From assembly GCF_009695545.1 (NCBI RefSeq), contig NZ_VUNS01000023.1, positions 1 to 64,000 of the forward strand: a stretch of DNA of 64,000 nt. Reading direction: 5' to 3'. This DNA is from Victivallis lenta (GTDB taxonomy: Bacteria; Verrucomicrobiota; Lentisphaeria; Victivallales; Victivallaceae). Within the stretch, counting starts at the first letter, position 1, and each line of letters begins with the position of its first letter. The notes under the pieces were generated by a model. That model saw only the letters and a list, made by a program, of their open reading frames with translations. It did no database searches and was not told the origin of the DNA. The position numbers and the translations under genes were made by a program. Positions 15,510 to 49,048 of this stretch are shown one piece after another.

Positions 15510-15510
15510 A

Positions 15511-20058: not shown

Positions 20059-20061
20059 ATT

Positions 20062-32619: not shown

Positions 32620-32680
32620 CGCGCACCTCCTGACCGATGGTGCTACAATATACCGCAAACAGCAACATTTCAAACAGCAA

Positions 32681-33276: not shown

Positions 33277-34416
33277 TCAGCCGCGGCGAAGCTCACGGTA
33301 GGCTCCCGGCTGCATCCCGGTGGCCCGGCGGAAAGCCAGCGACAGCGAAACCGGCGAGGAGTAGCCGGTCTGCGCGGCGATTTCCGACAGGGAAAGCTCG
33401 GTGCTGTCCAGCAGATTCTTCATCCGGTCAATCCGGAGCTGCTGCAGAAATTCAATCCCCGTCCGGCCGAGATGGCGGCGGAAGAGCCGGTTCAGCATCG
33501 ATTGCGACAGCTCCGCATACCGGGCGGCTTCGCCGATACCAACCGGCGAATCGCAGTTCTGAATCAGAAAACGGATTGCGGTCGCCAGTTTCAGATGCGG
33601 CACCGCAATAATGTCGGTACTGGCCCGGCGAATCACCGCGCTCGGTGAAATCACTTCAGGTTCAAGCGGCACGTCGCCGCCGTCGAGCATTTTCTGCATG
33701 GTTTCGGCAAGTTTCAATCCTACCGTGCCGTGTTCGCCGTTGATGCCGGAGAGCGGCACCGGCGTGTAGGTCGTATACAGTGGCCGCTGCGAGTTGCATA
33801 AGATTGCCACTTCCTCCGGCACCCGGAGCCCCAGCTCCTCCACCGCCCGCCAGACCGGCGCCACGACCTGGGGATTGACTAAAATCAGGGCCGCCGGTTT
33901 CGGCAGACTTTCCAGAAAGTTCCGAATTCCGGCCAGCATTTCCGGATAGGACGGCTCCACGCCGTCCCGCGGCACACAGTAGTGGGAATGGCATTCCAGG
34001 CCACGCCTGCCGGTCAGTTCCCGCAACGCCTGGCTGGGACAGATGGGAATTCCGCAGACTTCACCCGGGAACTCCTGAGTGGAAATCGCCGCAAAAATCT
34101 GAAATCCCTGCCCGACAAAGAAATCGACGGCCATTTCGGCCACCGCCCGGGTATCGCTCAATACGGATCGCACATTGCCGCCCGGCGGCAGGATTCGCGA
34201 TACAATCGGAATTTTCCCGATATCGCGGATGGCCGAGAGATCCTCCAGCGTCAGGTAGTCGGAAATCACGCCATCCCCCTGCCAGTCCCGCGGTATCACG
34301 TCCCGGCACAATTCGATCAGCCAGCCGTGCCGCTGGCCGAAGGCGTAGATCGGCTGAAGAAGTTGATCGTTCGGATGCATGAATGCACACAGAATATGGG
34401 GCATTTTACGGAACAT
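33277..34416 (-). CDS. XylR-type transcriptional regulator (LacI-like sensor + AraC HTH)
   Basis: A 379-aa regulator. Residues ~1-270 follow the periplasmic-binding-protein-like sugar sensor of XylR (DGVISDYLT, later LVNPQVVAPVWRAVEELGLRVPEEVAILC and PVPLSGINGEHGTVGLKLAE). Residues ~275-379 are an AraC-family double HTH ending in LSLAFRRATGMQPGAYRE. Such hybrids sense a sugar in the cytoplasm and activate nearby catabolic genes. The divergent plus-strand genes (pseudopilin, two glycoside hydrolases) are likely targets. Start ATG 34416 or 34404. Confidence 0.9.
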   Translation of the reverse strand: MFRKMPHILCAFMHPNDQLLQPIYAFGQRHGWLIELCRDVIPRDWQGDGVISDYLTLEDLSAIRDIGKIPIVSRILPPGGNVRSVLSDTRAVAEMAVDFFVGQGFQIFAAISTQEFPGEVCGIPICPSQALRELTGRRGLECHSHYCVPRDGVEPSYPEMLAGIRNFLESLPKPAALILVNPQVVAPVWRAVEELGLRVPEEVAILCNSQRPLYTTYTPVPLSGINGEHGTVGLKLAETMQKMLDGGDVPLEPEVISPSAVIRRASTDIIAVPHLKLATAIRFLIQNCDSPVGIGEAARYAELSQSMLNRLFRRHLGRTGIEFLQQLRIDRMKNLLDSTELSLSEIAAQTGYSSPVSLSLAFRRATGMQPGAYRELRRG

Positions 34417-34453
34417 GTTCGTGAAGTATATATGACTGTCTCAATTGCATGTA

Positions 34454-34481
34454 TTGATTTAATCCTTTTTTATGGTATAAT
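34454..34481 (+). promoter_or_regulatory. Strong sigma70-like promoter
   Basis: TTGATT (34454-34459), 16-base spacer and a perfect TATAAT (34476-34481). It reads toward the small ORF at 34542 and the pseudopilin gene. It lies between that gene and the divergent XylR-type regulator, a natural control point. Confidence 0.65.
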
Positions 34482-34541
34482 TATTATAAAGCAAAAGGAG
34501 GTGTATTTCAAGTACATTATTTGAATCAGAAAGGACATCTT

Positions 34542-34622
34542 ATGAAAAAATCCGTACCGGAGGCAATTTCCCGACATCACGTATCCGTGAATGCTTTACG
34601 GGGAAGCGATAAGGTTGCATAA
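34542..34622 (+). CDS. Possible 26-aa leader peptide
   Basis: ATG at 34542 with AAAGGA six bases upstream opens a basic 26-residue peptide (MKKSVPEAISRHHVSVNALR then GSDKVA). It lies downstream of the TATAAT promoter and 285 bases before the pseudopilin gene. No homology is recognised. The good ribosome site is the only coding evidence. Nothing else stands out in 34417-34907. Confidence 0.35.
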   Translation: MKKSVPEAISRHHVSVNALRGSDKVA

Positions 34623-34907
34623 TACTGGATATGTGAAGTTTTCGTGTACGGTCTGTCATGATATAACTCCTTTTAGTTGAATGAATTTATTCGGCCTCTG
34701 GCGGAAAATTGTTATGTTTGCTCTTCCTGGTTTCGTTCGTCTGCGTTGTCGTGGAATTCGCAGGGGAAATACATTTCCCCCGCCCCCCATTTCTTACTCT
34801 GTGCCGGGCTTTCATTTCCTGCGGGTTGCGTTCATATCCGCTGCATGGCGCATACCACGCTTTTTGGGTCGGGCAGCAATGCTGTTTTGTTTCACATATC
34901 CAGTATT

Positions 34908-35600
34908 ATGTATCGCAACTTCACATTGATTGAATTGCTGGTCGTGATAGCGATCATCGCCATTCTGGCGGGGATGCTGCTGCCGGCGCTGAACCGGGCG
35001 CGCCAGAAGGCGCGCGGAACCACCTGCCTCAGCAATCTTAAACAGATGATGCTCTATACGCAGCAGTATCTCGACAGTTACAACGGCACGATCACTTGCG
35101 AGGGGGACTGGGAACAGTGGGCAGGAGCCCTGTTCAAAGCCGGTTTTGTCGGACTCGGCGACTGGAAGGCGCTCAATTGCCCTGATGTCAACTTCTCGGC
35201 GGGAAATCTTGCTGGTGGAGTGGAAGACTGGAAGATCAATATGTTCGCCTATCCCGCCAATTATCTGGGCGCGGCCAAGATCAATGGAAACTATTACGGC
35301 GAGTCGTCGGCCAGTCCCTACCGGATTATCCGCGATGCAAGCCACTCTGCAATCAATTTCAAACCGGTAAAGCAGCCGTCGAACTTTCTGTTTCTTGCCG
35401 ACGGACGAAATGATCAGGGGGAGCCTTGGGCGAGACTTTATCTGAAGACTGCCTGCGGCTGGGCGAGTGCTCCGTGGCGAGGACATAGCGGCACGAGTTT
35501 CTCCGCAGCCTGGGGAGACGGTCATGCATCAATGGCGAACGAGGGAAAATTGGAAGAAACCACCTGCCCGAAAGAGGATATCGCCTGGGCAGCCGAATAA
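34908..35600 (+). CDS. Prepilin-type N-terminal methylation protein (Lentisphaerota pseudopilin)
   Basis: A 230-aa protein. After MYRN the classic [20 protein letters not shown] helix begins; Glu5 of the mature form is present. The residue before the cleavage point is Asn, not the usual Gly. The C-terminal part ([15 protein letters not shown], then [19 protein letters not shown]) has the H-x-G...DGH ending of the DUF1559-like pseudopilins that are abundant in Lentisphaerota and Planctomycetota. These proteins are thought to be surface or periplasmic assembly proteins; many copies accompany carbohydrate genes. The glycoside hydrolase gene follows 23 bases later. Confidence 0.88.
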
Positions 35601-35623
35601 GATTGAACGAAGGAAAAATTTGG

Positions 35624-38600
35624 ATGATGATGAAGAAATTGACCGCCTGGCTGCTGGTGCTGCTGGCCGTGGCAACTGCGGCTGCCGACCGGCTGCCGGC
35701 CAGCCCCTCCATCGACGATCTCGGAAACCTGACCGTCGGGAAACTCGCACTGCATTGGACTCGGTATGCCCCCGACTGGCGCAGTGAAACTCTTCAGGCG
35801 GACGATTTCAAGGCGGATGCCGGATTTCCTCGGCGCAGTCCCGGCCGGGTCGAGATTTCCGGCAAATGGAACAGCTTCCGTATCGCGATTTCGGCGGTTG
35901 CGGCCGGAAACAACGGAATCGCCTATACCGCCCGTTTCACGGCGGCTCCGCCGGTGGATACCGCGGCTCTCGCGCTGATCATGATCATGCCGGACCTCGA
36001 AGCGGGTGATGTCTGGGCTGATGGCCAGAAGATTGTATTGCCGAAGGAGTTCGAGAGAGTCTCCATTTTCAGCCGAAAGGTTCGTTCGCTCCGGTTCGGC
36101 AGCGGCGACAGGACCGTTGCCGTCGAAGGCGACTTCCTGCTGCAGATTCAGGACAACCGGAAATGGGGCAGCCGGTATTATGAGTTCAGGCTCGGAACGA
36201 CTCCGGTTTCCGGAAAAATCGGCGAGGCCTCCATCGACTTGCGCATCCGGGTCGAATCGCCGCGCACCGCTCCGATCGACCTCAAAGAGGCGTTCAATAT
36301 GGGGTTCAGGGATGAGACGCCCAACGATGGGAAAGGCGGCTGGACCGATCAGGGACCGGCCACCGACCTGCGTATGATGAAACCCGGAAAACTCTCGGCT
36401 TTCGGTGTCGATTTCGACATTGTCGATCCGGAACGAAACGGCGGACGTTCCTGTCTTGTGCTCTCATCCGGGCAGAAAAAGTTCCCGGCGGAGAAACGTG
36501 TTGTGCTCGACGGAGCCGGCGGGGAATTCCGGTATCTGTATTTGCTGCACGCCTCGGCCTGGACGCCGGCACAGATGCCGATCGGCACGATCATTGCGGA
36601 GTATGCTGACGGCAGAACGAAGGAAATTACGGTGCATGCCGGCCGCGATGTCGGCAACTGGTGGCCGCCCTGCAGTTTTGAAAACGGCGCCGTCGCCTGG
36701 ACCGGGGAGAAGGAGGAGTCTGTCGTCGGGCTTTACCTGTCGCAGTTTTCGGTCGGCACTGCTCCGTCCAGGCTGACTTTCAAAGCGGCGGACGGTTCCA
36801 ACGCCGTCTGGATGATCGTCGGCGCCGCACTCGGCGACCGCAGGCTGAATCTCCGGCAGATCGAGACTCCGTCGTATCTTGTCGCGGGAAAGGATTGGCT
36901 GCCGGTCGAATACAACGGCAATACCGCAGCGGGTTCTCCGCTCGATTTTTCGGTCTACCTCGACGCACCGGCCGGCAAGTACGGTCCGGTCATTGTCACC
37001 GAAGACGGTCATTTCGCCTTCCGTGACGCGCCGGAAAAACGAATTCGGTTCTTCGGCACTAATCTGGTCGGCTCATCGAATTGTCTCGACAAGGCACTGG
37101 CCGATGATTTCGTGGCGAAGCTGACCCGGCTCGGCTACAACTCGCTCCGTTTCCACCACTTCGAAAACGAGTTGCTCGATTTCCGCCCGGAGCTGACTTT
37201 CAACCCGAAGGCGCTCGATGAGTTCGACTATCTGTTCGCGGAACTCAAAAAACATGGTGTTTATCTTTGCCTTGACCTTTACGCGAGCCGTATCGTTGAT
37301 ATAAACAAAGATGTGAAGGAGTTCAAAGGATACTCTTTGCATGGTTTTGCGATGAAGACCCTGATTCCGATCAGCGAATCGGCGATGGATAACTGGAAGG
37401 AATTCGCCCGGCGGCTGCTGACTCACCGTAACCCGTATACCGGTCTGACCTACGCGGAGGACCCGGCGCTCTATTCGCTGAATCTCGTGAATGAAAATCC
37501 GCTCATCCTCGGCTGGAACAGTAATTCTGCGCTTGTTCCGCTTTTCGAGAAAAAATATGTCGGGTATTTGAAGACGAAAGGGCTCGACACGCCGGAGAAC
37601 CGCGCCTCCCGCGGCGGCCTCTTCATCGAGTTCCTGAACGACCTTCAGATCAGAAGCATCGAAGAGCAGAAACGATTCCTGAAGGAAGAACTGAAGCTGA
37701 CCGCGCTGATCACCGACCTCAATATGCTCAGCAACTTCACGATGAATGAAGTACGGGAGCATCTGGACTTTGTGGACAATCACCAGTATTGGGACGGGCC
37801 GTCGTTTCCGGTGCGGGACTGGCAGTTGCCGTATAGTTTCAACAATCATTCATGCATTGCAAATCGCGCGGAACTACCGCGGTACATGATGCCGGCACGG
37901 ATTTTCGGCAAACCGTACACGGTTACCGAATTCAATTTCAGCAACCCGAATCCGTACCGGGTCGAGGCGGCTCCGCTGATCGGCGGCTATGCCGGGCTGC
38001 AGGATTGGGACGGCCTCTACCGGTTCGCCTGGTCGCACAGTCGGGATTATATGAAAGCGGTCGATGTGCCGCGCGGCTTCGATCACGTCAACGATCCGCA
38101 GGCGCAACTGGCGGAACGCATCAGCAGTCTGCTTTTCATGCACGGCTACATCCGTCCGGCCGGGCCGGCCTTCGCCTTCAGCTGCACGCCGGAACAGCTC
38201 CGTTCGCTGGCGGGGCCTCCGGGAAATGACGGCGATTATCCGGCGGCGTTCACCGAACTCGGACTCTACGGCCGGATCGGAACGCTCTCTCCCGCCGCCT
38301 CGTTCCCCAGTGTGCAGAAGGTCGACGCGCTCAATGCCAACTGGGAGAAGCGGCTTCCCGCCGCTGCCCGCGCCGCCCTCGACAAACTCGAAAAAACCGG
38401 AGTCATCACGAGCGCCGGCGGACAGATCACGCTCGATTCGAAGGCGAAGACGCTGAAGATCGTCGCTCCGCAGTGCGAAGTGATGACCTTCTCCGGCAAT
38501 CTGTCCGGCAAAGTGATGAGACTTTCCGGCGCCGACCGTTACCAGACGGCCGCGTTGCTGTCGCTCGACGGCAAACCGCTGACCGAAAGCGGCAGGCTTC

Positions 38601-38875
38601 TGTTCGTTCAGATGCCGAACCTCGGCGCGACCAGGCTGAAGTTTTCGAATGAGCGCCGCAGCCTGCTCGAAAGCTGGGGGCAGCTGCCGATCCTGCTCGA
38701 AAAGTGCCGGGCCGACGTCGAACTCTCTCTGCCGAAGATGAAGGTCGAGGCGCTGAAGCTCGACGGCTCCCCGAACGGCAGCGTTCCGGCGGCTTATGAA
38801 GACGGCAGGCTCCGTTTCACGGCGGACACCGCTTCGCGTCCGGGTGGCGTGATGGTCTATCTGCTGACCCGCTGA
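35624..38875 (+). CDS. Large secreted glycoside hydrolase, TIM-barrel (clan GH-A-like)
   Basis: A 1083-aa protein with a signal peptide (KKLTAWLLVLLAVATAAA). The N-terminal ~440 residues are beta-rich accessory domains. A TIM barrel follows from FFGTNLVGS near 470: LRFHHFENELLDF, LNLVNENPL with the acid/base candidate Glu624, and YTVTEFNFSNPNP with nucleophile candidate Glu769. The beta-sandwich C-terminus ends at MVYLLTR. Similar multi-domain cellulase-like hydrolases are numerous in Victivallis-type genomes. Substrate unknown. Three ATG codons in a row (35624, 35627, 35630) follow AAGGA; the first is chosen. Confidence 0.85.
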   Translation: MMMKKLTAWLLVLLAVATAAADRLPASPSIDDLGNLTVGKLALHWTRYAPDWRSETLQADDFKADAGFPRRSPGRVEISGKWNSFRIAISAVAAGNNGIAYTARFTAAPPVDTAALALIMIMPDLEAGDVWADGQKIVLPKEFERVSIFSRKVRSLRFGSGDRTVAVEGDFLLQIQDNRKWGSRYYEFRLGTTPVSGKIGEASIDLRIRVESPRTAPIDLKEAFNMGFRDETPNDGKGGWTDQGPATDLRMMKPGKLSAFGVDFDIVDPERNGGRSCLVLSSGQKKFPAEKRVVLDGAGGEFRYLYLLHASAWTPAQMPIGTIIAEYADGRTKEITVHAGRDVGNWWPPCSFENGAVAWTGEKEESVVGLYLSQFSVGTAPSRLTFKAADGSNAVWMIVGAALGDRRLNLRQIETPSYLVAGKDWLPVEYNGNTAAGSPLDFSVYLDAPAGKYGPVIVTEDGHFAFRDAPEKRIRFFGTNLVGSSNCLDKALADDFVAKLTRLGYNSLRFHHFENELLDFRPELTFNPKALDEFDYLFAELKKHGVYLCLDLYASRIVDINKDVKEFKGYSLHGFAMKTLIPISESAMDNWKEFARRLLTHRNPYTGLTYAEDPALYSLNLVNENPLILGWNSNSALVPLFEKKYVGYLKTKGLDTPENRASRGGLFIEFLNDLQIRSIEEQKRFLKEELKLTALITDLNMLSNFTMNEVREHLDFVDNHQYWDGPSFPVRDWQLPYSFNNHSCIANRAELPRYMMPARIFGKPYTVTEFNFSNPNPYRVEAAPLIGGYAGLQDWDGLYRFAWSHSRDYMKAVDVPRGFDHVNDPQAQLAERISSLLFMHGYIRPAGPAFAFSCTPEQLRSLAGPPGNDGDYPAAFTELGLYGRIGTLSPAASFPSVQKVDALNANWEKRLPAAARAALDKLEKTGVITSAGGQITLDSKAKTLKIVAPQCEVMTFSGNLSGKVMRLSGADRYQTAALLSLDGKPLTESGRLLFVQMPNLGATRLKFSNERRSLLESWGQLPILLEKCRADVELSLPKMKVEALKLDGSPNGSVPAAYEDGRLRFTADTASRPGGVMVYLLTR

Positions 38876-38886
38876 CCGCAGCGCAA

Positions 38887-38931
38887 AATTCCCGGTGCGG
38901 AACAGGATTTGTCCTTCTCCGGGAATTTTTT
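38887..38931 (+). terminator. Intrinsic terminator after the secreted glycoside hydrolase
   Basis: AATTCCCGG (38887-38895) pairs with CCGGGAATT (38919-38927) followed by TTTT (38928-38931). An inner AGGA/TCCT pair sits in the loop. Confidence 0.8.
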
Positions 38932-38990
38932 CGCTCAAACGGTTACCGGCAGCAATCTGCGCAATAAACAACCGAACATTGAGAGGAATG

Positions 38991-41900
38991 ATGAAACATT
39001 TATACTCTGACGATCAGGATGTCTCCTTTTCCCGGCTCTTCGCCAACCCCGGAGCCCTCTACCGCGACACCCCTTTCTGGGCCTGGAACTGCCGTCTCGA
39101 CGGCGAGGAGCTTCATCGTCAGATCGGAATCTTCCACCAGATGGGCATGGGCGGATTTCACATGCACGCCCGCACCGGCCTGGGGACTCCGTACCTCGGC
39201 CCCGAATTCATGAAGCTGGTCCGGCAGTGCGTCGACGATGCCAGGGCCGGATCGATGCTCGCCTGGCTTTACGATGAGGACCGCTTTCCCTCCGGCGCAG
39301 CCGGCGGACTCGTCACCCGCGATCCAGCATTCCGCGCCCGCCACCTGCTCCTGACCTCCACCCGCCGGACCGAAGCGCCCGACCCCGCCAACGATGGTTC
39401 CGGGAAGCTTCTCGCCGTCTATGCGATCCGTTTCGATCAGGAACACCGGCTGGCGGATTACCGGCTGCTTGCCGACGGGGATCCCGCCGCGCCCGGCTTC
39501 GAACGGTTCTACGCTTATTTGATCGTCGAATCACGCAATTCCTGGTTCAATGACCAGGCTTACGTCGATACCCTCAATCCGCGTGCGATCCGCCGGTTCG
39601 TCGAACTGACCTACGAGGCTTATTTCAAGGCGGTCGGTGACGAGTTCGGCAAATCGATCCCCGCGATCTTTACCGACGAACCGCACTTCACCCATAAAAC
39701 CGTGCTGCGGTTTGCCGCCGAACGGCGCGATGTCCAGCTCCCCTATACCGATGACCTGCCCGAAACCTACCGCCGTGAATACGGCGCCGAATTCTTCGAC
39801 ACCCTGCCGGAACTGGTCTGGGAACGGGCCGACGGCGCCTGGTCGGCCGCCCGCTACCGGTATCACGATCATATTGCGGAGCGGTTCGCTTCGGCGTTCG
39901 CCGATACCGTCGGCAACTGGTGTGAACGCCACGGCATCCGTTTCTCCGGACACCTGCTGGAGGAACCGAGGCTGGAATCGCAGACCGCCGTCCTCGGCGA
40001 TGTGATGCGCAGTTACCGCTCATTCCAGCTGCCCGGGGTTGACATGCTCTGCGACTGGGTCGAACTTTCCACCGTCAAGCAGGCGGCCAGCGCTTCCCGT
40101 CAATACGGCTGCGGCGGGGTTCTCTGCGAACTGGACGGCGTGACCGACTGGGACTTCAACTTTTCCGGTCACAAGGGCCACGGCGACTGGCAGGCCGCGC
40201 TCGGTGTCACCGTCCGGGTTCCCCACCTGGCATGGCTGTCGATGGCAGGTGAGGCAAAGCGCGACTATCCCGCCTCCATCAGCGAGCAGTCGCCGTGGTG
40301 GCGGAAGTATCCGGTGATCGCCGATCACTTCGCGCGCGTCAACACCGCAATGAGCCGCGGCCGCGCCCTCTGCCGCGTCGGAGTGATTCACCCGGTCGAA
40401 TCTTATTGGCTGGTCTACGGCCCGCAGGATCAGACCGCCGGCGCCCGCCGTCAGGCCGAGCAGGATTTCAGTTCGCTGTGCCGCTGGGTGCTTCACGGGC
40501 TGATCGATTTCGACTTCATCGCGGAGTCGCTGCTGCCGACGCAGAACCTCATGGAATCCGGCGCCGCTTTCAAAGTCGGACAGATGAGCTATGAAACCGT
40601 CGTCGTCCCGCCGGCGATCACGCTGCGCGGCACGACCCTCGACCGGCTCGAGGCGTTTGCCGACGCCGGAGGCGACCTGATCTTCGCCGGCCGGATTCCC
40701 GTCTGCTGCGACGCAGTGCTTTGCGACCGCGCCGCCCGGCTGGCCGCCCGCTGCCGCCGGATCGATTTCTCGGAAGCGGCGCTGCTCGAAGCGCTCCGGG
40801 AGCGCCGCGATGTCGAAGTCGTGCGCAGCGATGACGGTTTTCCCGCGTCCTCACTGCTTTATCAGTTGCGCGATGCCGGAAACGAACGTTTCCTTCTTCT
40901 GGTCAACACCGAACGTTTCGGCGAGACGTTCACCGGGCGGGTGCGCATTCGCGGCAGCTGGCAGCTGGAGTTTCTCGATACCGCCACCGGCGAACAGAAG
41001 CCGCTGGCCGCCGCTCATGAACACGGCTGGACGGTATTGGAATACGATTTCTATGCGCACGGCCATTTGCTGCTGCGTCTGACTCCGGCCGCGGCGAGCG
41101 TCGGAGGAGAGTTGCTGCGGCCTCCTTATGCCGATGCGGAGGTGGAGGCGCGGATTCTCGGTCGTCTGAACGGTTTCGCGCTGCCGGTCACGCTGGACGA
41201 ACCGAACGTACTGGTGCTCGATCAGGCGCAATGGCGCACCGATGACGGCAACTGGGAGCCGGCGGAAGAGATTCTGCGGCTCGACAATCTTGTCCGGGCC
41301 AGATTCGGTCTGCGGCCGAAGAGCGGCCAGATCGTCCAGCCGTGGGTCAACCCGCCGGACGGCAAGACGTACGGCCGTCTGGAACTGCGTTACCCGATCG
41401 AATGTGCAGTCCCGGTAACCGGTACAATGCTCGCGCTGGAACAGCCTGAAAACACCGAACTGGAGCTTGACGGTCAGCCGCTGACCTTTGCGGACGCCGG
41501 ATTCTGGACTGACCGCTCGGTCCGGAAAACCACGCTGCCTGAATTGACGGCGGGAATCCACACCTTGATTCTGCGCCGCGATTACCGTCTTGATACCGAT
41601 ATCGAACGAATCTATCTGCTCGGTGATTTCGGAGTGGAACTCGGCGGCGACCGGATGCGGCTCACAGCGCCGGCGCGTACCCTGCACTGGGGAGACGTCG
41701 CCCCGCAGGGGTTGCCGTTCTACTCCGGAAACCTGACCTATCACTGCAAGTTCACGCTGGCGGAAGCCGGCGCGACGGCTCTGCGCTTTCCTTCGCGCGG
41801 CACCCGGCTGGCGGAGGGACTCCGCAACAACGATGCGGCGCGCGAATGTGACTTCGCCGGTTTCCGGGCGACGGTGATCGGCGTATCGGTCGACGGCGGC

Positions 41901-42152
41901 GAGGAACAATCGGTGGCGTTCGCCCCGTTCCAGTGCGAACTCGGAACGCTTGCCGCCGGGGAGCATACGCTGGCAATCACCGTCTACGGCAGCCGCGTCA
42001 ACAGCTTCGGCGCCCTCCACCTTTCCTGGCCGGTTCCGTGGATCGGACCGGAGGCGTGGCGTACCGAAGGCGACCGTTTCACGCGCGACTACCGGGTGCG
42101 GAAATTCGGCGTGACGATCGCTCCGCTGCTGGTCAAAGGCGCCGGAGCCTGA
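38991..42152 (+). CDS. GH106-like glycoside hydrolase (alpha-L-rhamnosidase type)
   Basis: A 1053-aa protein without signal peptide. The N-terminus FANPGALYRDTPFWAWNCRL then GMGGFHMHARTGLGTPYLG is the hallmark of the Glyco_hydro_106 family, whose studied members release L-rhamnose from plant polysaccharides. FTDEPHF (near 222-228), HLLEEPR and GVLCELDG carry acidic residues of the catalytic barrel. C-terminal beta domains with jelly-roll character follow. It is cytoplasmic by sequence, so it would act on imported oligosaccharides made by the secreted hydrolase upstream. Start at ATG 38991 (GAGAGG four bases before); ATG 38988 is possible. Confidence 0.82.
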   Translation: MKHLYSDDQDVSFSRLFANPGALYRDTPFWAWNCRLDGEELHRQIGIFHQMGMGGFHMHARTGLGTPYLGPEFMKLVRQCVDDARAGSMLAWLYDEDRFPSGAAGGLVTRDPAFRARHLLLTSTRRTEAPDPANDGSGKLLAVYAIRFDQEHRLADYRLLADGDPAAPGFERFYAYLIVESRNSWFNDQAYVDTLNPRAIRRFVELTYEAYFKAVGDEFGKSIPAIFTDEPHFTHKTVLRFAAERRDVQLPYTDDLPETYRREYGAEFFDTLPELVWERADGAWSAARYRYHDHIAERFASAFADTVGNWCERHGIRFSGHLLEEPRLESQTAVLGDVMRSYRSFQLPGVDMLCDWVELSTVKQAASASRQYGCGGVLCELDGVTDWDFNFSGHKGHGDWQAALGVTVRVPHLAWLSMAGEAKRDYPASISEQSPWWRKYPVIADHFARVNTAMSRGRALCRVGVIHPVESYWLVYGPQDQTAGARRQAEQDFSSLCRWVLHGLIDFDFIAESLLPTQNLMESGAAFKVGQMSYETVVVPPAITLRGTTLDRLEAFADAGGDLIFAGRIPVCCDAVLCDRAARLAARCRRIDFSEAALLEALRERRDVEVVRSDDGFPASSLLYQLRDAGNERFLLLVNTERFGETFTGRVRIRGSWQLEFLDTATGEQKPLAAAHEHGWTVLEYDFYAHGHLLLRLTPAAASVGGELLRPPYADAEVEARILGRLNGFALPVTLDEPNVLVLDQAQWRTDDGNWEPAEEILRLDNLVRARFGLRPKSGQIVQPWVNPPDGKTYGRLELRYPIECAVPVTGTMLALEQPENTELELDGQPLTFADAGFWTDRSVRKTTLPELTAGIHTLILRRDYRLDTDIERIYLLGDFGVELGGDRMRLTAPARTLHWGDVAPQGLPFYSGNLTYHCKFTLAEAGATALRFPSRGTRLAEGLRNNDAARECDFAGFRATVIGVSVDGGEEQSVAFAPFQCELGTLAAGEHTLAITVYGSRVNSFGALHLSWPVPWIGPEAWRTEGDRFTRDYRVRKFGVTIAPLLVKGAGA

Positions 42153-42526
42153 AAATGAAACTCTGCGGCGGCGCATCCGCCGAAGAAGCGGAACCCGCCG
42201 GAAGCAGCCGGGCCATCTCGATTGTCGAATTCAAATGGCCCGTCAGAAATGGAACATCCGTTCAGTCGCGGCAAAGTATCAATCACTCAGGCAAGTGATC
42301 AAGGAAATCGAAAAATGCCGTCTTGCCCGCAAAAAAGAGGTTTGATTCAGGTCTCAAGCCGGAGAAGAAAGATCGGGAAAACTCAAGCCGGAAAGGGGGC
42401 ACAAGTCATGCCTCGGCGAAACGACACTCGAAGCGGGCGACGGCATCGGCGGGAATTGGCACGTTTCCTTTTTCGGCAGGGGTAAATTTCAAACCGGCTC
42501 CTCATTGTACCCGTACTGTTTCGGCA
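42153..42526. other. Gene-poor stretch at the left edge of the second island
   Basis: Contains one short basic open frame at 42235-42345 on the plus strand (36 aa, MARQKWNIRSVAAKYQSLRQ then VIKEIEKCRLARKKEV) without a ribosome site, perhaps the relic of a larger gene. The hairpin GGCGGCG-CAT-CCGCC near 42162 lacks a T-run. Nothing else is supported. Base composition changes here from the GC-rich host gene to the more AT-rich island. Confidence 0.45.
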
Positions 42527-44569
42527 TCATATCTCTTCAATGCCTATTTGTTTCAGGTATTGATACGTCCCGTCGTAAAACTCCGGCAGACGGGTGGCGT
42601 CATCGGGATTGCCTTCGGGAATGCAGAGCACCATGCCTTGACGCGCTCGCGTCAAAAGCACGCGATACGCGTTGATCTGATAGGCTTTGCGTTCCGGCGC
42701 GCGGATATTCTGCCACTTGTTTCCAGTAAAAGAATAATTACCCCATCTCGTTCCCTGCCAACGCAAATCGCCATCCCAAACCAAACACGTCCAGTCGAGT
42801 TCCAATCCCTGCACATCAAATTCCGAAGCGGCATCCTCCAGGAAAAGCGACGAACGAATATCCGTAATATCATCCAGGAACCAATGCACGGTATCGGGTT
42901 TACATCGCACGTCGATCGCCAGCGGCCGCAAGCGTTGGGCCTGTGACGAAACCACCATGCCGTAGCGCTCCGTGCCGCGTTTCTGCCGCCGCAGCCATGC
43001 TTTGGCCTGATCCAGCGAACGGGTCAGCACAATCGGATATTTTCCTTCCAGCATCCGAAACCGTTCTTGTGCTTCGGGAATATCGCCTTCCAACAGAAAA
43101 TGAACAAAATTCGAAAGTTGTTCCGCCCGGAAGGAACGCATTGAGACCGCCAAATGTAAATCGCTGCTGCGTTCCAATCTGGAATTGGCTTGCAACAAAT
43201 CTTCCAATTCGCCCTCGGCATACTCTTTGCCGGTCAACTCATCGGAGATAAACACATTCCAGTTGGGAAAGTTCGCATTGATCGCCCGCAACCACTCGCC
43301 GATTCCTGCCTCCCCTGTATTGATTTCCTGTCCGCCGCCGACCAGACAAACGATAACGCCCCAGTCTTCACGCAAATTCAGCGACCAGATCAAAAACTCC
43401 GGTTCTGACATCGGGAAATCATGAATGCCTTGTTTGCGGCTCAGCCAATTTGCCAACTGTTGTTTGGTCCATGCCCGCTGTGCTTCGTCAAAAATCGCCA
43501 CATGCTCGACTTCGGAATATCCATCATCCTGATGCTTGGTGACTTTCGCCGGATCAATTTCCAATACCCCGTCGCGAATCGGCTTCTTGAGCTTGTTCAA
43601 TGTCTCGTTACGGTAATGATGCACGATTTGAATAAAGGATTTGACATCGCGCCGAGCCGTGGTGAGATTGTAACGAACGCCCGGATTACGTTCCTCTTCC
43701 TGCCGCTTCTTGTCGCGCGCCAGGGCTTCGCTCAACACCGAAACCAGCGGCTGATTGCCGGAGAGATATACTGCAAGGCTCTTTTTCTCAAACTGCCGAA
43801 CCGCGATATTCAACCCGACCAGTGTTTTTCCCGCGCCGGGAACGCCGGTAACAAAACAGATGGATTTCTCGTGATTGGCCTGCGAGTGTTCAATCACGCG
43901 CATGACAAATTCGCTGGTACGCTGTAAATTCTCGCCGGAAGCTTCGCTGCGAGTAATATCCTCGACGGAATGATTCAAATACAAGGAGCTTGCCGCCTGA
44001 ATGATGGTCGGCGTCGGCATGTAGCGACTATACCCCCAACGACTCAAATCGGCGTGCTTGCCATGTTCCTGTGTGATTTTGGCAATCACCTCACGAAGAC
44101 CGCCGGCATTGCAGAGAATCGGCTCAAACACATGATCATCATAAAGACAAAATTCCTGCGTTGCAGAGGAATCCGGCGCTTCAGTGGCGATCAATACGGG
44201 AACAATGGTCAAGTCCCGACTGGCCTCATGGAAGTTTTTCAAATCGAGCGCATAATCCCAAACCTGCTCGGAATCCTGCCGGTAATAGACCTCCGCTCCG
44301 ACCTTGAATTCCAGCGCAAAAACAATACCCTGAAACAAAAGAACCACATCAATACGCTTCCCCAGTCGTGGAATGGAATATTCAAAAAGAATCTGTCCAT
44401 CGGCCTTGTTTCGCAGAATCTCTTTGAGCATCTGAATCTCAAATTGCCACGCATTGCGTTGCAAATCCACGAGATCAAACGAATTTTCCGCCGCCAAAGC
44501 CCCGAGAATCTCATTCTCGGAACTCCCGACAAAATTCGTTATGCTATCTGCGTAGAAATATCGATTCAC
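42527..44569 (-). CDS. DUF2075 family SF1 helicase/NTPase with N-terminal nuclease-like domain
   Basis: A 680-aa protein. The first ~200 residues show a PD-(D/E)XK pattern: KRIDVVLLF (Asp74) then FALEFK (Glu87, Lys89). Walker A GVPGAGKT lies at 242-249; AIFDEAQRAW near 373 is Walker B, and MRSFRAEQLSNF, YGMVVSSQAQRLRPLA and RVLLTRARQGMVL are later helicase motifs. DUF2075 proteins occur in defence islands; the nuclease-plus-helicase layout suggests cleavage of foreign DNA, but activity is unproved for this form. It is the last intact gene of the minus-strand island operon. Confidence 0.88.
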   Translation of the reverse strand: MNRYFYADSITNFVGSSENEILGALAAENSFDLVDLQRNAWQFEIQMLKEILRNKADGQILFEYSIPRLGKRIDVVLLFQGIVFALEFKVGAEVYYRQDSEQVWDYALDLKNFHEASRDLTIVPVLIATEAPDSSATQEFCLYDDHVFEPILCNAGGLREVIAKITQEHGKHADLSRWGYSRYMPTPTIIQAASSLYLNHSVEDITRSEASGENLQRTSEFVMRVIEHSQANHEKSICFVTGVPGAGKTLVGLNIAVRQFEKKSLAVYLSGNQPLVSVLSEALARDKKRQEEERNPGVRYNLTTARRDVKSFIQIVHHYRNETLNKLKKPIRDGVLEIDPAKVTKHQDDGYSEVEHVAIFDEAQRAWTKQQLANWLSRKQGIHDFPMSEPEFLIWSLNLREDWGVIVCLVGGGQEINTGEAGIGEWLRAINANFPNWNVFISDELTGKEYAEGELEDLLQANSRLERSSDLHLAVSMRSFRAEQLSNFVHFLLEGDIPEAQERFRMLEGKYPIVLTRSLDQAKAWLRRQKRGTERYGMVVSSQAQRLRPLAIDVRCKPDTVHWFLDDITDIRSSLFLEDAASEFDVQGLELDWTCLVWDGDLRWQGTRWGNYSFTGNKWQNIRAPERKAYQINAYRVLLTRARQGMVLCIPEGNPDDATRLPEFYDGTYQYLKQIGIEEI

Positions 44570-44906
44570 TGGTATTCGTCCTTATTCGTTCACGATTCCG
44601 CGGTCCTTCGGGTAGTTGGATCTTCCCCTGAAGTATTTGCCGGCATTCGCGCCACTTTTCGCCGGCCGGCAGCTCCTGCCTGCACCACACTCCGGACAAA
44701 TTCGGTTCGACAGGCAGTTCTTTTTTCGATAATTTCCTTCACATGAGCAGCGTGAGCTTTTTTATTTTGAAATATATTGCTGATACAGCCGGAAATAATC
44801 GTATTTTACCTTTGACCGCCGGTTGCTTGAATATCCATGCGATCAAAAACGCGATACCGAAGATTACAAAGCTTTTATCATATCTTCCTCTCAATCAAAA
44901 ATACAA
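44570..44906. other. Intergenic region between DUF2075 and DUF262 genes
   Basis: No supported gene. The minus strand has open stretches in two frames (for example KELPVEPNLSGVW and later GEKWRECRQILQGK near 44610-44700) that could be a decayed coding sequence, but no start, ribosome site or recognisable family is present. The DUF2075 leader probably includes a promoter here; none is obvious. Confidence 0.4.
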
Positions 44907-46697
44907 TTAGCCTTGACATAGTCTTTTATATGCTTTCTGAATAAGCTTTGCCATCAGAACTCGACGTTCTTTTAAGAATTCATTATACTCCATTGTATCG
45001 AACCCCTGCGGCAAAGCATGGTTTTCGCACATCAACTTAAAGTTATCTTCGCCAAGTTTTTGAATGAACTCATTGATATAATCTGCCGGTGGACGGTCGG
45101 AAATAGCAATATTGGTCTGATAGTCTAAATAGGTATAGTTTGCAATTTGATTACGTTCGCGATCTGAATCAATACCAATAGATGTCAAATAATTCTTTGG
45201 AAAAATATGATGCTTGTCGACAGCATTTTTGTTGCCGTGGGCTCCTGGAAGTAAAAACATTGCAAGATGACTTGTGCTGAACAACATAGGAATATTTAAA
45301 ATATTTTGAGAAGCCAAATATGCATACCAATGAGGTGAAATCGCTGCCGACGACTCCAAATCTTTCGGCAAAGTGATTGCAAAGTAATCTTCCGTCAGGC
45401 GGGAATCAATCACAGAACTCAGGTAAGCCGCCAGCTCGTCTGCGTTTTTTAAAGTTTTCATATCAGCAAATAATTTTTCAGCATCTGTCTCTACTGACGA
45501 ACTGAAATATGAGGTAACGCTTACCATAAAAAACCATCTTCTGAACAAAGAGCTTAACTTCTGATTTTCAAGATGGAATTCATATTTGGCAATTAAATAG
45601 AGAATATAACTAAATACAATTGAGTTATCGGCTGCAATCAATTTACTGCTGACATATCCGCCTTGTGCAATAATATTCAAAAAAGCATGCCAATTATTCA
45701 AATCGATGACAGTTGACAATGCCGCGCCGAATACAGCAAGATTTTCGTTACGCCGCTCTTCGGTAACAATGCCTGAATCCAAATCTTTTCCTCGCAATAA
45801 CATATATGCGTATCTCAAGCGGGCGCGCTTAAATCCGACTCCAACAATCATACGAACCAAATGTACCGGTTCAACGATTAAAAGGTTGTTATAAGATGTT
45901 CCAGCGGCTGGAATATGAGACTTTTCACAGAAGGAATCAATTTTGTCCCGATCTTCTTTGGCATACACAGAGAGCAGAGTAAGAATGAAGTCGTTTTCAT
46001 TCAGCTTCTGGCCCCCGGAATTCACCCGAACAAAAATTTCCGCAACCTCTTCTTCACTTGCGGAACGATAAATATCCAATACAGGAACCGGATATTTTTC
46101 CAATCCCAATAATTCATTCAATCGGTTTTCGATGAGATCCTCTTGTTCATCGGTTAAGATTGGAAGATTATTTTTTTCATAACTTTCATTCAGTCGCTTA
46201 ATATAAGCCCTGCGGAGTCTGGACAGCGTATTTTGCTCTTTGGCCAGAAATACAACGCTGAGATCGGAAATCCACTCCGGATTGCGTTCATAAGCTACGC
46301 TCCAGTTTTCAAAACGATCAACTTCACGAAGCGGATTGTAACATATCTTGATATTGCGTTCTTTGAAATTCTTATCTTTAACTTTTATTCCATACATGGT
46401 TGCGACTAGCGCCGTTAACCGTTGCTGGCCATCAATAATAAGACTTTTGGGCGATTTTAATTCTTTATCATTGAGTCCGATATCTTCCATTTTGCTGGAA
46501 TAGTTTTCGGGGGACTCCCACAGCATAATATACCCGATAGGGAACCCTTTGAGCATGGAATCATATAAATTTCTTACTTTTTCATTTGCCCATACAAATG
46601 GCCTCTGCAAATCCGGCAAGCCAATCCGGCCGAGCTTGATCTCTTTCAAGAGAAAATCCAGATCAATATTATGGGATTCAAAAATTTTATTTGCCAT
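44907..46697 (-). CDS. DUF262 family protein with HNH-like C-terminus (GmrSD-related)
   Basis: A 596-aa protein. QRPFVW (31-36) and IIDGQQRLTAL (87-97) are the ParB/Srx-like motifs of DUF262, the domain that uses a nucleotide in GmrS. The C-terminal part contains DKHHIFPKNYL near 491-501, the H-H core of an HNH/DUF1524-type nuclease (GmrD-like). GmrSD enzymes cut phage DNA with glucosylated hydroxymethyl-cytosine; many DUF262 proteins have other or unknown targets (for example BrxU). This protein is AT-rich relative to the host. The start ATG 46697 has no strong Shine-Dalgarno and follows a decayed gene by 10 bases. Confidence 0.88.
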   Translation of the reverse strand: MANKIFESHNIDLDFLLKEIKLGRIGLPDLQRPFVWANEKVRNLYDSMLKGFPIGYIMLWESPENYSSKMEDIGLNDKELKSPKSLIIDGQQRLTALVATMYGIKVKDKNFKERNIKICYNPLREVDRFENWSVAYERNPEWISDLSVVFLAKEQNTLSRLRRAYIKRLNESYEKNNLPILTDEQEDLIENRLNELLGLEKYPVPVLDIYRSASEEEVAEIFVRVNSGGQKLNENDFILTLLSVYAKEDRDKIDSFCEKSHIPAAGTSYNNLLIVEPVHLVRMIVGVGFKRARLRYAYMLLRGKDLDSGIVTEERRNENLAVFGAALSTVIDLNNWHAFLNIIAQGGYVSSKLIAADNSIVFSYILYLIAKYEFHLENQKLSSLFRRWFFMVSVTSYFSSSVETDAEKLFADMKTLKNADELAAYLSSVIDSRLTEDYFAITLPKDLESSAAISPHWYAYLASQNILNIPMLFSTSHLAMFLLPGAHGNKNAVDKHHIFPKNYLTSIGIDSDRERNQIANYTYLDYQTNIAISDRPPADYINEFIQKLGEDNFKLMCENHALPQGFDTMEYNEFLKERRVLMAKLIQKAYKRLCQG

Positions 46698-46707
46698 TAG
46701 TCATTTC

Positions 46708-47105
46708 TCATAAGTTAATAATCGCATCCTGAATGCACTGGCGGTCGTGCCAAATAGCGTCGAACCATTCTTTCAATTCCGCAATGTTTTCCGGTTCGTC
46801 AAAACCGGTACTCATAGCGTGCCGGATAGGGTTCACTAAACCAAGTCCGGAAGCAGTATACTGCTACGTTAAACGATTGCGCAATTTGCGTTCATCCGAA
46901 TCGCCGACAAACGCCAGACGATCCAGGATATCCGCAGTTTATCAATGGACGGCAATACATTTTCGAGCATCTCAAGAGGAACGGAAAACAATGCGGTAAT
47001 GACAGAAAAACAGGAATTCTGCGGCAACCCTGTTGAAAGCAGTTCCCCCGCCTTGAGTCGTTTATGATTGATCAACTGCATCATTGCCCTTGTATTTTCT
47101 CTCAA
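46708..47105 (-). pseudogene. Broken gene upstream of DUF262
   Basis: The minus strand reads KRLKAGELLSTGLPQNSCFS, later MLENVLPSIDK, to about 46943. It then continues one frame over as ADILDRLAFVGDSDERKLRN, meets TAG at 46864-46866, and goes on in the same frame (SGLGLVNPIRHAMSTGFDEP then ENIAELKEWFDAIW) to TGA at 46708. One frameshift and one nonsense codon thus interrupt a protein of about 130 residues or more. I cannot name the family. It sits where an operon partner of DUF262 would be expected. Confidence 0.65.
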
Positions 47106-47168
47106 TAACAGCCCTGGCCTCTGAACAGTTCTTGTCCACTCGGCTCATCCATTTCCGGGAAGTCTGCA

Positions 47169-47332
47169 TTATTCCCCGGCCTTACCGGATTTGCCCCAGA
47201 CATCGGCCTCATCTTTCTTGAACTTCCAGTAACGGCCGATACGGCGGCCTGGCATGCCTTTGCCTTCGGTCCATTTGTAAATGGTCTCGCGGCAAGCACC
47301 AAGGTATTCCGCGCTTTCTACCGATCTTCCAT
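47169..47332 (-). pseudogene. Frameshifted helix-turn-helix (excisionase-type) gene
   Basis: ATG at 47332 has GAGG seven bases upstream, but the frame ends after four codons (TAG at 47318-47320). One frame over the sequence reads VESAEYLGACRETIYKW, then GKGMPGRRIGRYWKFKK and a GKSGKAGE end at TAA 47169. This is the DNA-binding domain that in other genomes precedes restriction or defence genes (SVKEVAEYLG..RETIYKW type). A single-base indel explains the break. It was probably the first gene of the island operon. Confidence 0.75.
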
Positions 47333-47550
47333 ATTATGACCTCAGCTCATCCATATAAAAACATATTTCAGCGCACTACTATACTGCTAAAATATTGCAC
47401 TTTATGGAAAATGCAAGCGTCTATATGGATTTGATAGTGATTTTTAGTAATTTTTAATTGATTCAAGAATTGTATGGGATGATTTAAAAATAAAGAAGGC
47501 CCATTCTCGGAAAAGGAAAGTCGCAGAAACAGCACAAAGAGATAACATAC

Positions 47551-47574
47551 AAAAAAGCCGGTCACATGACCGGC
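47551..47574 (-). terminator. Terminator of the tRNA operon
   Basis: On the minus strand GCCGGTC-ATGT-GACCGGC is followed by six T. It lies 13 bases beyond the 3' end of the initiator tRNA. Confidence 0.85.
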
Positions 47575-47586
47575 ATAATCTTTCAA

Positions 47587-47661
47587 TGGTAGCGGGGAAT
47601 GGAATCGAACCATTGACCTTCAGGTTATGAGCCTGACGAGCTGCCACTGCTCTACCCCGCG
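47587..47661 (-). tRNA. tRNA-Met(CAT), initiator type
   Basis: The cloverleaf is complete: acceptor CGCGGGG/CCCCGCT, anticodon arm TCAGG-CTCATAA-CCTGA, T-arm AATGG-TTCGATT-CCATT, encoded CCA. The first acceptor pair is a C-U mismatch; an unpaired 1-72 position is the mark of bacterial initiator tRNAs (usually C-A). The AGCTCGTC segment of the D-arm is also typical of initiators. Confidence 0.92.
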
Positions 47662-47669
47662 CTGTAAAA

Positions 47670-47747
47670 TGGGGTGGTAGACCGGACTTGAACCGGCGAC
47701 CTCCTGGGCCACAACCAGGCGCTCTAACCAACTGAGCTACAACCACC
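47670..47747 (-). tRNA. tRNA-His(GTG)
   Basis: Anticodon arm CCTGG-TTGTGGC-CCAGG reads GTG. The extra G at position -1 opposite C73, unique to tRNA-His, is encoded. Acceptor GTGGTTG/CTACCAC has one T-T mismatch at 6-67. The CCA end is encoded. It is transcribed with the initiator tRNA eight bases downstream. Confidence 0.92.
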
Positions 47748-47869
47748 ATATCGGTTACGTTTTATGAATATACCCCCGATTACGGAAAAATCAAGCTCAA
47801 ATTGCCGGAAAGATCGGATATTTTACGATTTTTCCGGCAAAATCACCCGAAATCCTCCGGCAACCGGCT

Positions 47870-49048
47870 TCAGAGAGCGTCCCGGACCGCGTAAATGTCC
47901 TGCCGCCCTCCGGCTCCGCGACGAAACCAGTTGGCCGGCGCCTGCTCAAGTTTCACCTTGACCTCACGCGTTTCTCCGGAGCGGCGGAGCTGCAGCGTCA
48001 CCTCATCCCCGGGCGCAGCGGAGAAAATCCGGCTCTGCAGATCCCCCGGACCATTGACCGGTTCGCCGCCGACGGCGAGAATCACGTCGCCGCGCTGCAG
48101 CACCTGAGCCGCCGGAGAGTCACGGTAGATCTGCGCGACCGCCACACCGGATTCAAGCTTCAGCCGCGTCCTGACCTCACGCGGAATCGGCTCGAAAAGA
48201 ACACCGAGCCACGGCCGCCTGACCTGTCCGTGCCGGATCATCTCCTCCGCCACGTGCTTCGCCAGATCCGCGCTGATCGCGAAACTGATGCCGATGCTGC
48301 CGCCCGAAGGCGACAGGATGAAGTCGTTGACCCCGATCACCTCACCCGCCAGATTCAGCAGCGGACCGCCGGAATTGCCGGGGTTGATCGACGCATCGGT
48401 CTGGATATAGCTCTCATGCAAATTTACCCCGACTCCGCGCCGTTTCATGCCGGAAACCACCCCCACCGTAACCGTACGCGACAGGCTGAACGGCGCACCG
48501 ATCGCAATCGCCCAATGGCCGATTTTCACCCGGTCGATATCGGCGAACTTCAGCACGTCGAATTTCCGGTCGCCGTCGATCTTGAGCAATGCGAGGTCGG
48601 AGGGGGGATCGACCCCGACCACCTTCGCGTCGAACTCCGACCCGTCGTTCGTGGTCACGAAAAACGAATCCTGGTCGCGCACGACATGGAAATTGGTCAG
48701 AATATAGCCGTCCTCGCGGACAAAAAAGCCGGACCCCTGCCCGCTCGGGACATCCTTGTACTCGACCCGGCTCCGATAGTAATCGATCGGCGAAAGCACT
48801 CCCACGCGCTTCTGCGACGTGATCAGCACGACACCCGGCATCACTTTCTCGACGGCGCCGGCGAATTCCTCCTGCAGCTCCGCCGCCGCTCCGCTCAACG
48901 ATACTGCGGCGGGCTCCGGCTCCGGCGGAACCGGGGAAGCCGCCGCGGCCGTCTCCGGAAATCCCTTCACAATACCCAGCGTCAGAAGCGTTCCGGCGCA
49001 GGCGGCGCAGAACGCGGTCACATATAAAGTCCGGTCTCTCATTGTCAA
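47870..49048 (-). CDS. Membrane-anchored serine protease with one PDZ domain (HtrA/DegS-like)
   Basis: A 392-aa protein. Residues ~3-30 form a signal anchor (LYVTAFCAACAGTLLTLGIV), followed by a proline-rich linker. The trypsin-like domain has His121 (TNFHVV), Asp151 (SDLALLKI) and Ser226 (GNSGGPL). One PDZ domain follows (RPWLGVLF, GDVILAVGGEPV). One PDZ and an anchor fit DegS or small HtrA forms that act in envelope stress. Start chosen at TTG 49048, seven bases after GGAGG; an ATG at 49042 is too far from that site and ATG 49063 lacks one. It follows the prc-like gene on the same strand, behind a terminator. Confidence 0.92.
   Translation of the reverse strand: MTMRDRTLYVTAFCAACAGTLLTLGIVKGFPETAAAASPVPPEPEPAAVSLSGAAAELQEEFAGAVEKVMPGVVLITSQKRVGVLSPIDYYRSRVEYKDVPSGQGSGFFVREDGYILTNFHVVRDQDSFFVTTNDGSEFDAKVVGVDPPSDLALLKIDGDRKFDVLKFADIDRVKIGHWAIAIGAPFSLSRTVTVGVVSGMKRRGVGVNLHESYIQTDASINPGNSGGPLLNLAGEVIGVNDFILSPSGGSIGISFAISADLAKHVAEEMIRHGQVRRPWLGVLFEPIPREVRTRLKLESGVAVAQIYRDSPAAQVLQRGDVILAVGGEPVNGPGDLQSRIFSAAPGDEVTLQLRRSGETREVKVKLEQAPANWFRRGAGGRQDIYAVRDAL

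What the first reader, a model, noticed from the sequence alone, without database searches (positions are those of the whole stretch)
42153..47332. Second, decaying defence island next to tRNA genes
On the minus strand an HTH gene and a second gene are broken by small indels or a nonsense codon, while DUF262 and DUF2075 genes stay intact. The layout suggests an operon losing parts but keeping nuclease-type genes. It abuts the initiator tRNA/tRNA-His pair, a likely insertion hotspot.
Basis: partly seen in the sequence, partly recalled or inferred. Interest (0 to 1): 0.5.

Follow-up and report, generated by a model that had tools for sequence, protein, structure and literature searches.

The report
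Layered phage-defence genes, partly decayed
Next to two tRNA genes of a Victivallis-like gut bacterium, two complete genes that probably cut phage DNA lie among the wreckage of at least two other defence genes; each part belongs to a known kind, so this is an ordinary though clear case of a defence island turning over.

Summary
On the minus strand a short HTH gene (47169-47332) and a second gene are broken, while a DUF262 gene (44907-46697) and a DUF2075 gene (42527-44569) are intact. The 'second gene' is only the first ~170 residues of a ~1060-residue HKD+SNF2 helicase, with a frame change, a ~40-codon internal loss, a stop, and ~890 residues missing; read errors cannot explain that.

The reading as one operon losing parts is only partly supported. 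No relative found here carries the four genes together. HTH and helicase are neighbours in one other genome; in another an intact helicase stands before DUF4391 and type III restriction-modification genes. A DUF262-type gene lies near 2 of 70 DUF2075 relatives. I read the locus as a stack of separate modules: two surviving, probably single-gene systems (a GmrSD/BrxU-like nuclease; a Dna2-like nuclease-helicase, PADLOC PDC-S41) beside remains of others. Other copies of this tRNA-Met are integration sites in the genus, but at this copy no integrase or att repeat was found. New members of known kinds; defence function is inferred.

The parts
47670..47746 (-). tRNA-His (GTG)
   Evidence: ARAGORN; Rfam
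47587..47661 (-). tRNA-Met (CAT); positions 1 and 72 do not pair by my reading, which fits an initiator tRNA
   Evidence: ARAGORN; Rfam; sequence
47557..47574 (-). terminator-like hairpin plus T run after the tRNA pair
   Evidence: 6 such sites found, 6.9 expected by chance, so weak by itself
47169..47332 (-). Remnant of a MAD1-like helix-turn-helix gene; out-of-frame loss of 13 bases near the 5' end
   Evidence: intact 86%-identical copy in G031
46726..47084 (-). Remnant of the N-terminus (residues 1-170 of ~1060) of an HKD+SNF2 helicase gene, with frame change, ~40-codon gap and stop
44907..46697 (-). Intact DUF262 gene: 596 aa, DUF262 domain with DGQQR plus C-terminal HNH-type residues (HHIFP...N...N), BrxU/GmrSD-like
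   Evidence: pN/pS
44585..44784 (-). Probable remnant of a NERD-type nuclease gene: zinc-ribbon end 44585-44701 (54% over 39 residues to G061); only weak similarity (E 0.02) from there to 44784
   Evidence: intact relatives carry NERD, one of them also Zn_ribbon_Top1; the remnant in its own frame has no Pfam hit
42527..44569 (-). Intact DUF2075 gene: 680 aa, N-terminal PD-(D/E)XK-like nuclease part plus SF1 helicase (Schlafen group 3 helicase domain); PADLOC PDC-S41
   Evidence: pN/pS
38895..42152 (+). Left neighbour: long convergent ORF without Pfam hit. Its junction to the end of DUF2075 is also present in a second assembly (L081, 98.4% over 4268 bp, ending at window 42794); there the match stops after the last 88 codons of DUF2075 and the last 207 bp of that contig are unrelated

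Best explanation
The locus is a stack of separately acquired defence modules on the 3' side of a tRNA-Met gene. An older operon (MAD1-like HTH, then an HKD+SNF2 helicase, in a relative followed among others by DUF4391 and type III Mod/Res) has been cut down to its first two gene starts, and probably a NERD nuclease gene to its tail. Two genes survive and are probably stand-alone systems. Shown: their integrity, domains, conserved active-site residues, purifying selection, and their occurrence apart from each other. Inferred: the DUF262-HNH protein works like GmrSD/BrxU, its DGQQR domain binding NTP and licensing the C-terminal HNH part to cut DNA with modified or otherwise foreign bases; the DUF2075 protein works like Dna2-type enzymes, its SF1 motor running on DNA while the PD-(D/E)XK part cuts it. 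Both would act against incoming phage DNA.
For: Lesions in HTH and helicase far beyond read error. HTH next to intact helicase in G115; helicase, DUF4391, Mod, SLFN_AlbA and Res in one G012 locus. No trace of DUF4391, Mod, Res or integrase in 42001-47600 at E 0.1. DUF262: DGQQR and H496-H497, P500, N520, N529 invariant in the 18 rows of A2, which I chose; best fold match BrxU, Foldseek E 3.5e-13, Z 16.3 over 469 residues though at 21.6 A because the domains are placed differently; SspE C-terminal domain Z 11.6, 304 residues, 5.3 A; DndI Z 10.2, 432 residues, 6.9 A. DUF2075: D74, E87, K89, Q102, Y106 and the SF1 motifs invariant in the 28 rows of A1, which I chose; Foldseek top rows SLFN11, UPF1, Dna2 (E 4e-4 to 7e-4, TM about 0.25), McrC for the nuclease part (probability 1.0, E 4e-3); Can2 Z 9.2 for residues 1-168. 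PDC-S41 E 7.3e-269 over the full length. Independence: DUF262-type gene near 2 of 70 DUF2075 loci, HTH or helicase near 0 of 70, DUF2075 near 0 of 19 DUF262 loci (16 of these have only about 1.5 kb of flank).
Against: No activity is tested. The DUF262 protein has no Pfam DUF1524 hit and only approximates the published GmrD motif. The DUF2075 model is moderate (pLDDT 72.6, pTM 0.49), and most helicase rows have tied Z values. The helicase remnant ends 28 bp before the DUF262 start, and a DUF262 relative in G261 (L167) has a distant helicase homologue (25% over 285 residues) beside it, divergently; so an ancestral unit that included DUF262 is not excluded. One of the two DUF2075 loci with DUF262 genes (L094) is the same contig as L079, from which two of the nine profile seeds came.
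Confidence: 0.66

Rival explanations
1. One ancestral operon (HTH, helicase, DUF262, NERD, DUF2075 and lost members) that is being reduced; DUF262 and DUF2075 are its surviving effectors.
For: Same strand, tight spacing; HTH plus 123 bp upstream align to G031 (72.5% over 302 columns). DUF262 can be an embedded operon member: relatives at 47% and 38% stand directly after a methyltransferase/specificity pair (L182; best specificity row is mad5) and after HsdS (L164); in G261 a distant helicase gene lies divergently beside a DUF262 relative; in G279 a NERD gene follows DUF262, as in the window.
Against: No relative found has the set: HTH near helicase piece in 2 of 120 genomes including the own; DUF262 solo in G005; HTH or helicase near 0 of 70 DUF2075 loci; DUF2075 neighbours vary.
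Confidence: 0.2
2. A degenerate integrative element: the whole stretch came in as one island through site-specific recombination at the tRNA-Met 3' end and lost its integrase.
For: The 3' 52 nt of tRNA-Met recur alone at G000:C46 and G000:C15; in G007:C23 a full tRNA-Met and such a copy enclose about 19 kb, with an integrase fragment after the tRNA (PF00589 E 9.6e-6, just under the curated cut-off); in G000:C32 an integrase ORF (E 2.7e-9) lies beside another tRNA-Met copy. G031 has an integrase gene upstream of a related helicase gene. G003 has an integrase about 2.7 kb from the same tRNA pair, but it starts directly beside a tRNA-Asn, which is its likelier target.
Against: No repeat of the tRNA 3' end in window 34001-49000 (11-mers; only a T-run match near 48730) or elsewhere on contig C23 at E 1e-5; no integrase similarity inside the stretch with three integrase queries.
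Confidence: 0.2
3. Assembly or read errors make intact genes look broken.
For: The genome is a 78-contig draft.
Against: The helicase lost about 84% of its length and ~40 internal codons; the NERD-like gene most of its body; the neighbouring 680- and 596-codon frames are clean.
Confidence: 0.02

Closest known systems
GmrSD / BrxU type IV restriction enzymes (DUF262 + HNH); PADLOC HEC-05 / PDC-M55C
   Same: Fused ~600 aa layout, DGQQR motif, C-terminal HNH-type residues, BrxU as best fold (motifs from PMC4619093, abstract and section 13, and passages of PMC10952713)
   Different: No DUF1524 Pfam hit; KHHIFPK in place of the published (E/D)H(I/L/V)xPQ; 15-17% identity to BrxU over the fold alignments; PADLOC rows cover parts of the protein only
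PADLOC PDC-S41 (Schlafen group 3 helicase, DUF2075)
   Same: Full-length profile match, E 7.3e-269
   Different: No difference seen. No function for PDC-S41 was found in the open-access searches and passages
Dna2 / SLFN11-type nuclease-helicases
   Same: Nuclease part plus SF1 helicase in one chain; among the top Foldseek rows
   Different: About 11% identity, TM about 0.25; SLFN11's nuclease is of another fold (recalled)
C3a139 HKD+SNF2 helicase with DUF4391 and type III R-M
   Same: Remnant matches the N-terminal 170 residues
   Different: Only the stump remains; no DUF4391, Mod or Res

Membership tests
GmrSD/BrxU family | DUF262 domain with DGQQR | tested here: met
   PF03235 E 2e-30; D89-R93 invariant in the 18 rows of A2
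GmrSD/BrxU family | C-terminal HNH domain in the same chain | tested here: met
   H496 H497 P500 N520 N529 invariant in the 18 rows; whole-chain match to BrxU, Z 16.3. The separate match of residues 455-570 to a Cas9 HNH domain (Z 5.8, 3.4 A) is weak by the tool's own note
GmrSD/BrxU family | Pfam DUF1524 and exact GmrD motif (I/L/V)(E/D)H(I/L/V)xPQ | tested here: not met
   No DUF1524 row at E 0.001; window reads KHHIFPK (motif from PMC4619093 section 13). So 'GmrSD-like', not 'GmrSD'
GmrSD/BrxU family | Cuts modified phage DNA with NTP | not testable with these tools
   needs purified protein
PDC-S41 | Full-length profile match | tested here: met
   E 7.3e-269, residues 1-680 to profile 1-653 of 657
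PDC-S41 | PD-(D/E)XK residues and SF1 motifs kept | tested here: met
   D74, E87, K89, Q102, Y106, GVPGAGKT, DE.QR, GGGQEI, QGLE.D, TRARQG invariant in the 28 rows of A1; naming the first five a PD-(D/E)XK site is my reading, from memory of that superfamily
PDC-S41 | Protects against phage | not testable with these tools
   no experiment
HKD+SNF2 helicase / type III-like operon | Helicase motor, DUF4391, Mod, Res | tested here: not met
   only residues 1-170 of the helicase; none of the others at E 0.1 in 42001-47600
MADS | MAD1 above NCBIfam cut-off | tested here: not met
   48.5 bits against 80, on a truncated query
Type-2 BREX-related (BR) system | DUF499 ATPase and DUF3780 beside an N-HKD helicase (from passages of PMC12839542) | tested here: inconclusive
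   not among the six G012 proteins scanned with Pfam; not all ORFs of that locus were scanned
tRNA-integrated genomic island | Integrase in the stretch | tested here: not met
   three integrase queries, 42001-47600, E 0.1
tRNA-integrated genomic island | Repeat of the tRNA 3' end at the far border | tested here: not met
   11-mers, 34001-49000; contig C23, E 1e-5

The most novel reading that the evidence does not exclude
The DUF2075/PDC-S41 gene is a one-gene, self-sufficient Dna2-like phage-DNA nuclease-helicase that spreads between phyla of gut anaerobes and settles directly on the 3' side of tRNA genes without carrying an integrase. In 9 of 70 loci a tRNA lies in the fetched flanks; the nearest tRNA faces the gene with its 3' end in 9 of 9, and 7 lie within 700 bp (about 1.6 expected from the tRNA density of the same flanks), two of the 7 being the same orthologous site.
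Probability: 0.3. Interest if true: 0.5.

Novelty: new member of a known kind. Interest (0 to 1): 0.28.

Why it matters
It gives a readable example of how a defence island turns over: multi-gene systems decay to stumps while nuclease genes that seem able to act alone stay intact under selection. It also offers two well-conserved, untested proteins from a poorly studied phylum, and points to tRNA 3' sides as landing places for the PDC-S41 gene, which can be checked in many more genomes.

Tried and rejected
Rejected: MADS membership (HTH below cut-off; the same HTH family stands before BREX, type I R-M, Dcm-like and helicase genes in relatives, so the HTH does not name the system). Rejected: read errors (see rivals). 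Rejected: HTH rescued by a later start; its frame has no ATG/GTG/TTG before the internal ATG of GMPG (by eye).

Led nowhere: att repeats around the tRNA-adjacent DUF2075 loci (12-mers, all nine loci plus G005's DUF262 locus: none except the tandem tRNA-Val pair itself); an empty site by synteny, because DegP and the tRNA pair or tRNA-His lie on different contigs in G001, G002, G003, G005 and G007; promoter scan (15 found, 8.0 expected). Papers, listings only: DUF2075 (5 papers, none in a defence context by title; with 'defense' 0), DUF4391 (1 paper), Schlafen/helicase/anti-phage (4 papers), MADS (7 papers), DUF262/HNH (39, 15 listed). Passages only: PMC13356809 and PMC12988326, in which PDC-S41 does not occur in the main text; PMC12839542, whose reference list names a 2025 preprint on bacterial Schlafens in anti-phage defence that I did not see. 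Library is open-access only.

Results against my reading: no tRNA in the fetched flanks of 61 of 70 loci; the total of 11 tRNAs in these flanks is not above what I would expect from general knowledge, only position and direction stand out; L102 and L103 are one orthologous site. The phylum labels of the 70 loci are those of draft MAGs and may include binning errors. DUF262 pN/pS to L182 is 0.411. In L081/L162 the match to DUF2075 stops after the last 88 codons and 207 unrelated bases follow: either the gene is cut short in that strain or the contig is chimeric; not resolved. This contig is 98.4% identical to the window while the two other G005 genes compared (DegP, DUF262) are 58-60% and 77% identical in protein, so I take it for a contaminant and do not count it as an independent relative. 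In the HTH search 38 of 120 genomes match, many as weak general HTH hits. In the helicase-piece search 13 of 120 match at E 0.1; rows above 0.001 are probably chance. The zinc-ribbon remnant has no Pfam hit. McrC is not among the 50 rows shown though Foldseek gave it, which says nothing against it. More distant DUF262 proteins (L005-L007, L010, L176, L094) were left out of A2. Two HTH-led loci (L022, L024) have a next gene without PADLOC hit.

Full report
What is there. The window is part of one contig (C23) of a 5.55 Mb, 78-contig draft. A near-identical public contig is labelled 'uncultured Victivallis sp.' (L162), so the host is a Victivallis-like gut bacterium by inference. From the tRNA pair leftwards on the minus strand lie: HTH remnant, helicase remnant, DUF262 gene, a NERD-like remnant, DUF2075 gene, then a convergent long ORF without Pfam hit.

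The broken genes. The HTH frame is interrupted by the loss of 13 bases near its start compared with the copy in G031, 86% identical. The next gene is recognisable only through intact relatives: its pieces match residues 1-53 and 63-170 of the ~1060 aa helicases of G012 and G115, with a frame change, a ~40-codon gap, a stop, and no further match. These helicases match PADLOC C3a139 (HKD+Snf2), E 8.8e-122 and 1.4e-133. In G012 the helicase is followed, among other ORFs, by DUF4391, a type III methyltransferase, a SLFN_AlbA protein and a type III restriction subunit; in G115 an HTH gene with a PADLOC mad1 hit (E 7.4e-10) directly precedes it. None of the later operon members leaves a trace in the window stretch at E 0.1. 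A third remnant, 44585-44701, matches the zinc-ribbon end of a NERD protein of G061 (54% over 39 residues; NERD and Zn_ribbon_Top1 confirmed for that intact protein), but has no Pfam hit itself. Intact copies of all three exist in relatives.

The intact genes. The DUF262 protein keeps DGQQR and the HNH-type residues, invariant in the 18 aligned rows. Its model (pLDDT 85.0) matches BrxU best (Foldseek E 3.5e-13; Z 16.3), then SspE and DndI, with weak ParB-like and Cas9-HNH matches for the two ends (Z about 6). BrxU, GmrSD and SspE couple NTP use by DUF262 to DNA cutting or nicking by the HNH part (PMC10952713, passages; PMC4619093, abstract and section 13). The DUF2075 protein keeps D74, E87, K89, Q102, Y106 and the helicase motifs in the 28 aligned rows; calling the first set a PD-(D/E)XK site is my reading, supported by McrC (Foldseek probability 1.0, E 4e-3) and Can2 (Z 9.2 over residues 1-168) as fold matches. 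Synonymous change exceeds non-synonymous change in both genes (pN/pS 0.126-0.201 for DUF2075, 0.185 and 0.411 for DUF262), so they work, or did until recently.

Linkage. A scan of genome contigs gave 70 DUF2075 relatives, labelled Victivallaceae/Lentisphaeria, rumen Alphaproteobacteria, Bacteroidales, Spirochaetales, Fibrobacter, Verrucomicrobia and others, at up to 75-76% identity in another phylum, which points to transfer between phyla if the MAG labels hold. A DUF262-type gene (profile from 9 sequences, two of them from one of the hit loci) was found in the fetched flanks of 2 of 70, HTH or helicase relatives in 0 of 70; flanks are up to 6 kb, shorter at contig ends. DUF2075 was found near 0 of 19 DUF262 loci, 16 of them with about 1.5 kb flanks; one of the 19 (L167, G261) has a distant helicase homologue beside it. 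DUF262 relatives occur alone (G005), after methyltransferase/specificity genes (L182, L164), and once before a NERD gene (G279). So the DUF2075 gene behaves as a separate module; for DUF262 this is likely but less certain.

The tRNA. In the genus, other tRNA-Met copies look like attachment sites: in G007 a full tRNA-Met and a 52-nt copy of its 3' half enclose about 19 kb, with an integrase fragment after the tRNA; another copy in the own genome (C32) has an integrase ORF beside it. At the window's copy neither repeat nor integrase was found. For DUF2075 relatives in general, the nearest tRNA in the flanks faces the gene with its 3' end in 9 of 9 loci that have one; 7 are within 700 bp against 1.6 expected. 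Two of the seven are the same site in related genomes; 61 of 70 loci have no tRNA in the flanks. Insertion on the promoter side of a tRNA would be selected against, so the direction alone needs no special mechanism.

Verdict. All parts are members of known kinds.

Noticed in passing
window 13374-23142: The 'first' island: type I R-M locus with open frames for HsdM, a PDC-S20 protein, HsdS, a 587 aa protein with a sub-cut-off SMC_N match, and an HsdR-like protein.
   Followed up: partly
L015, L016, L018, L046, L050, L047, L023, L042: One family of small MAD1-like HTH genes stands directly before unrelated defence genes: BREX BrxF/BrxC, type I HsdM, a Dcm-like methyltransferase, a DrmD-like helicase, the HKD+SNF2 helicase; in L022 and L024 the next gene had no PADLOC hit. 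A shared leader regulator would be worth a survey.
   Followed up: partly
L094, L099, L100, L102, L103, L112, L114, L142, L153: DUF2075 genes lie on the 3' side of the nearest tRNA gene in all nine loci (of 70) that have a tRNA in the fetched flanks; no att repeats by 12-mers in any of the nine.
   Followed up: partly
G007:C23:8720-27792 (L208): About 19 kb island between a full tRNA-Met and a 52-nt copy of its 3' half, with an integrase fragment and no obvious defence cargo by eye.
   Followed up: partly
L162 / L081 (CALXNS010000006.1): A 4475 bp contig in the G005 assembly is 98.4% identical to the window over 4268 bp while other G005 genes are far more distant (probable contamination); its last 207 bp, where DUF2075 should continue, are unrelated.
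   Followed up: partly
L079, L082, L083, L172: A NUDIX-like gene (named by eye, no profile run) recurs beside DUF2075, DUF262 or NERD genes.
   Followed up: no
window 31267-32673 (-): A 468 aa tyrosine integrase about 10 kb left of the stretch, its target not identified.
   Followed up: no
L182, L183 (IMG/VR contigs): A 47%-identical DUF262 gene on contigs filed as viral, directly after a methyltransferase/specificity pair whose best specificity row is mad5.
   Followed up: partly
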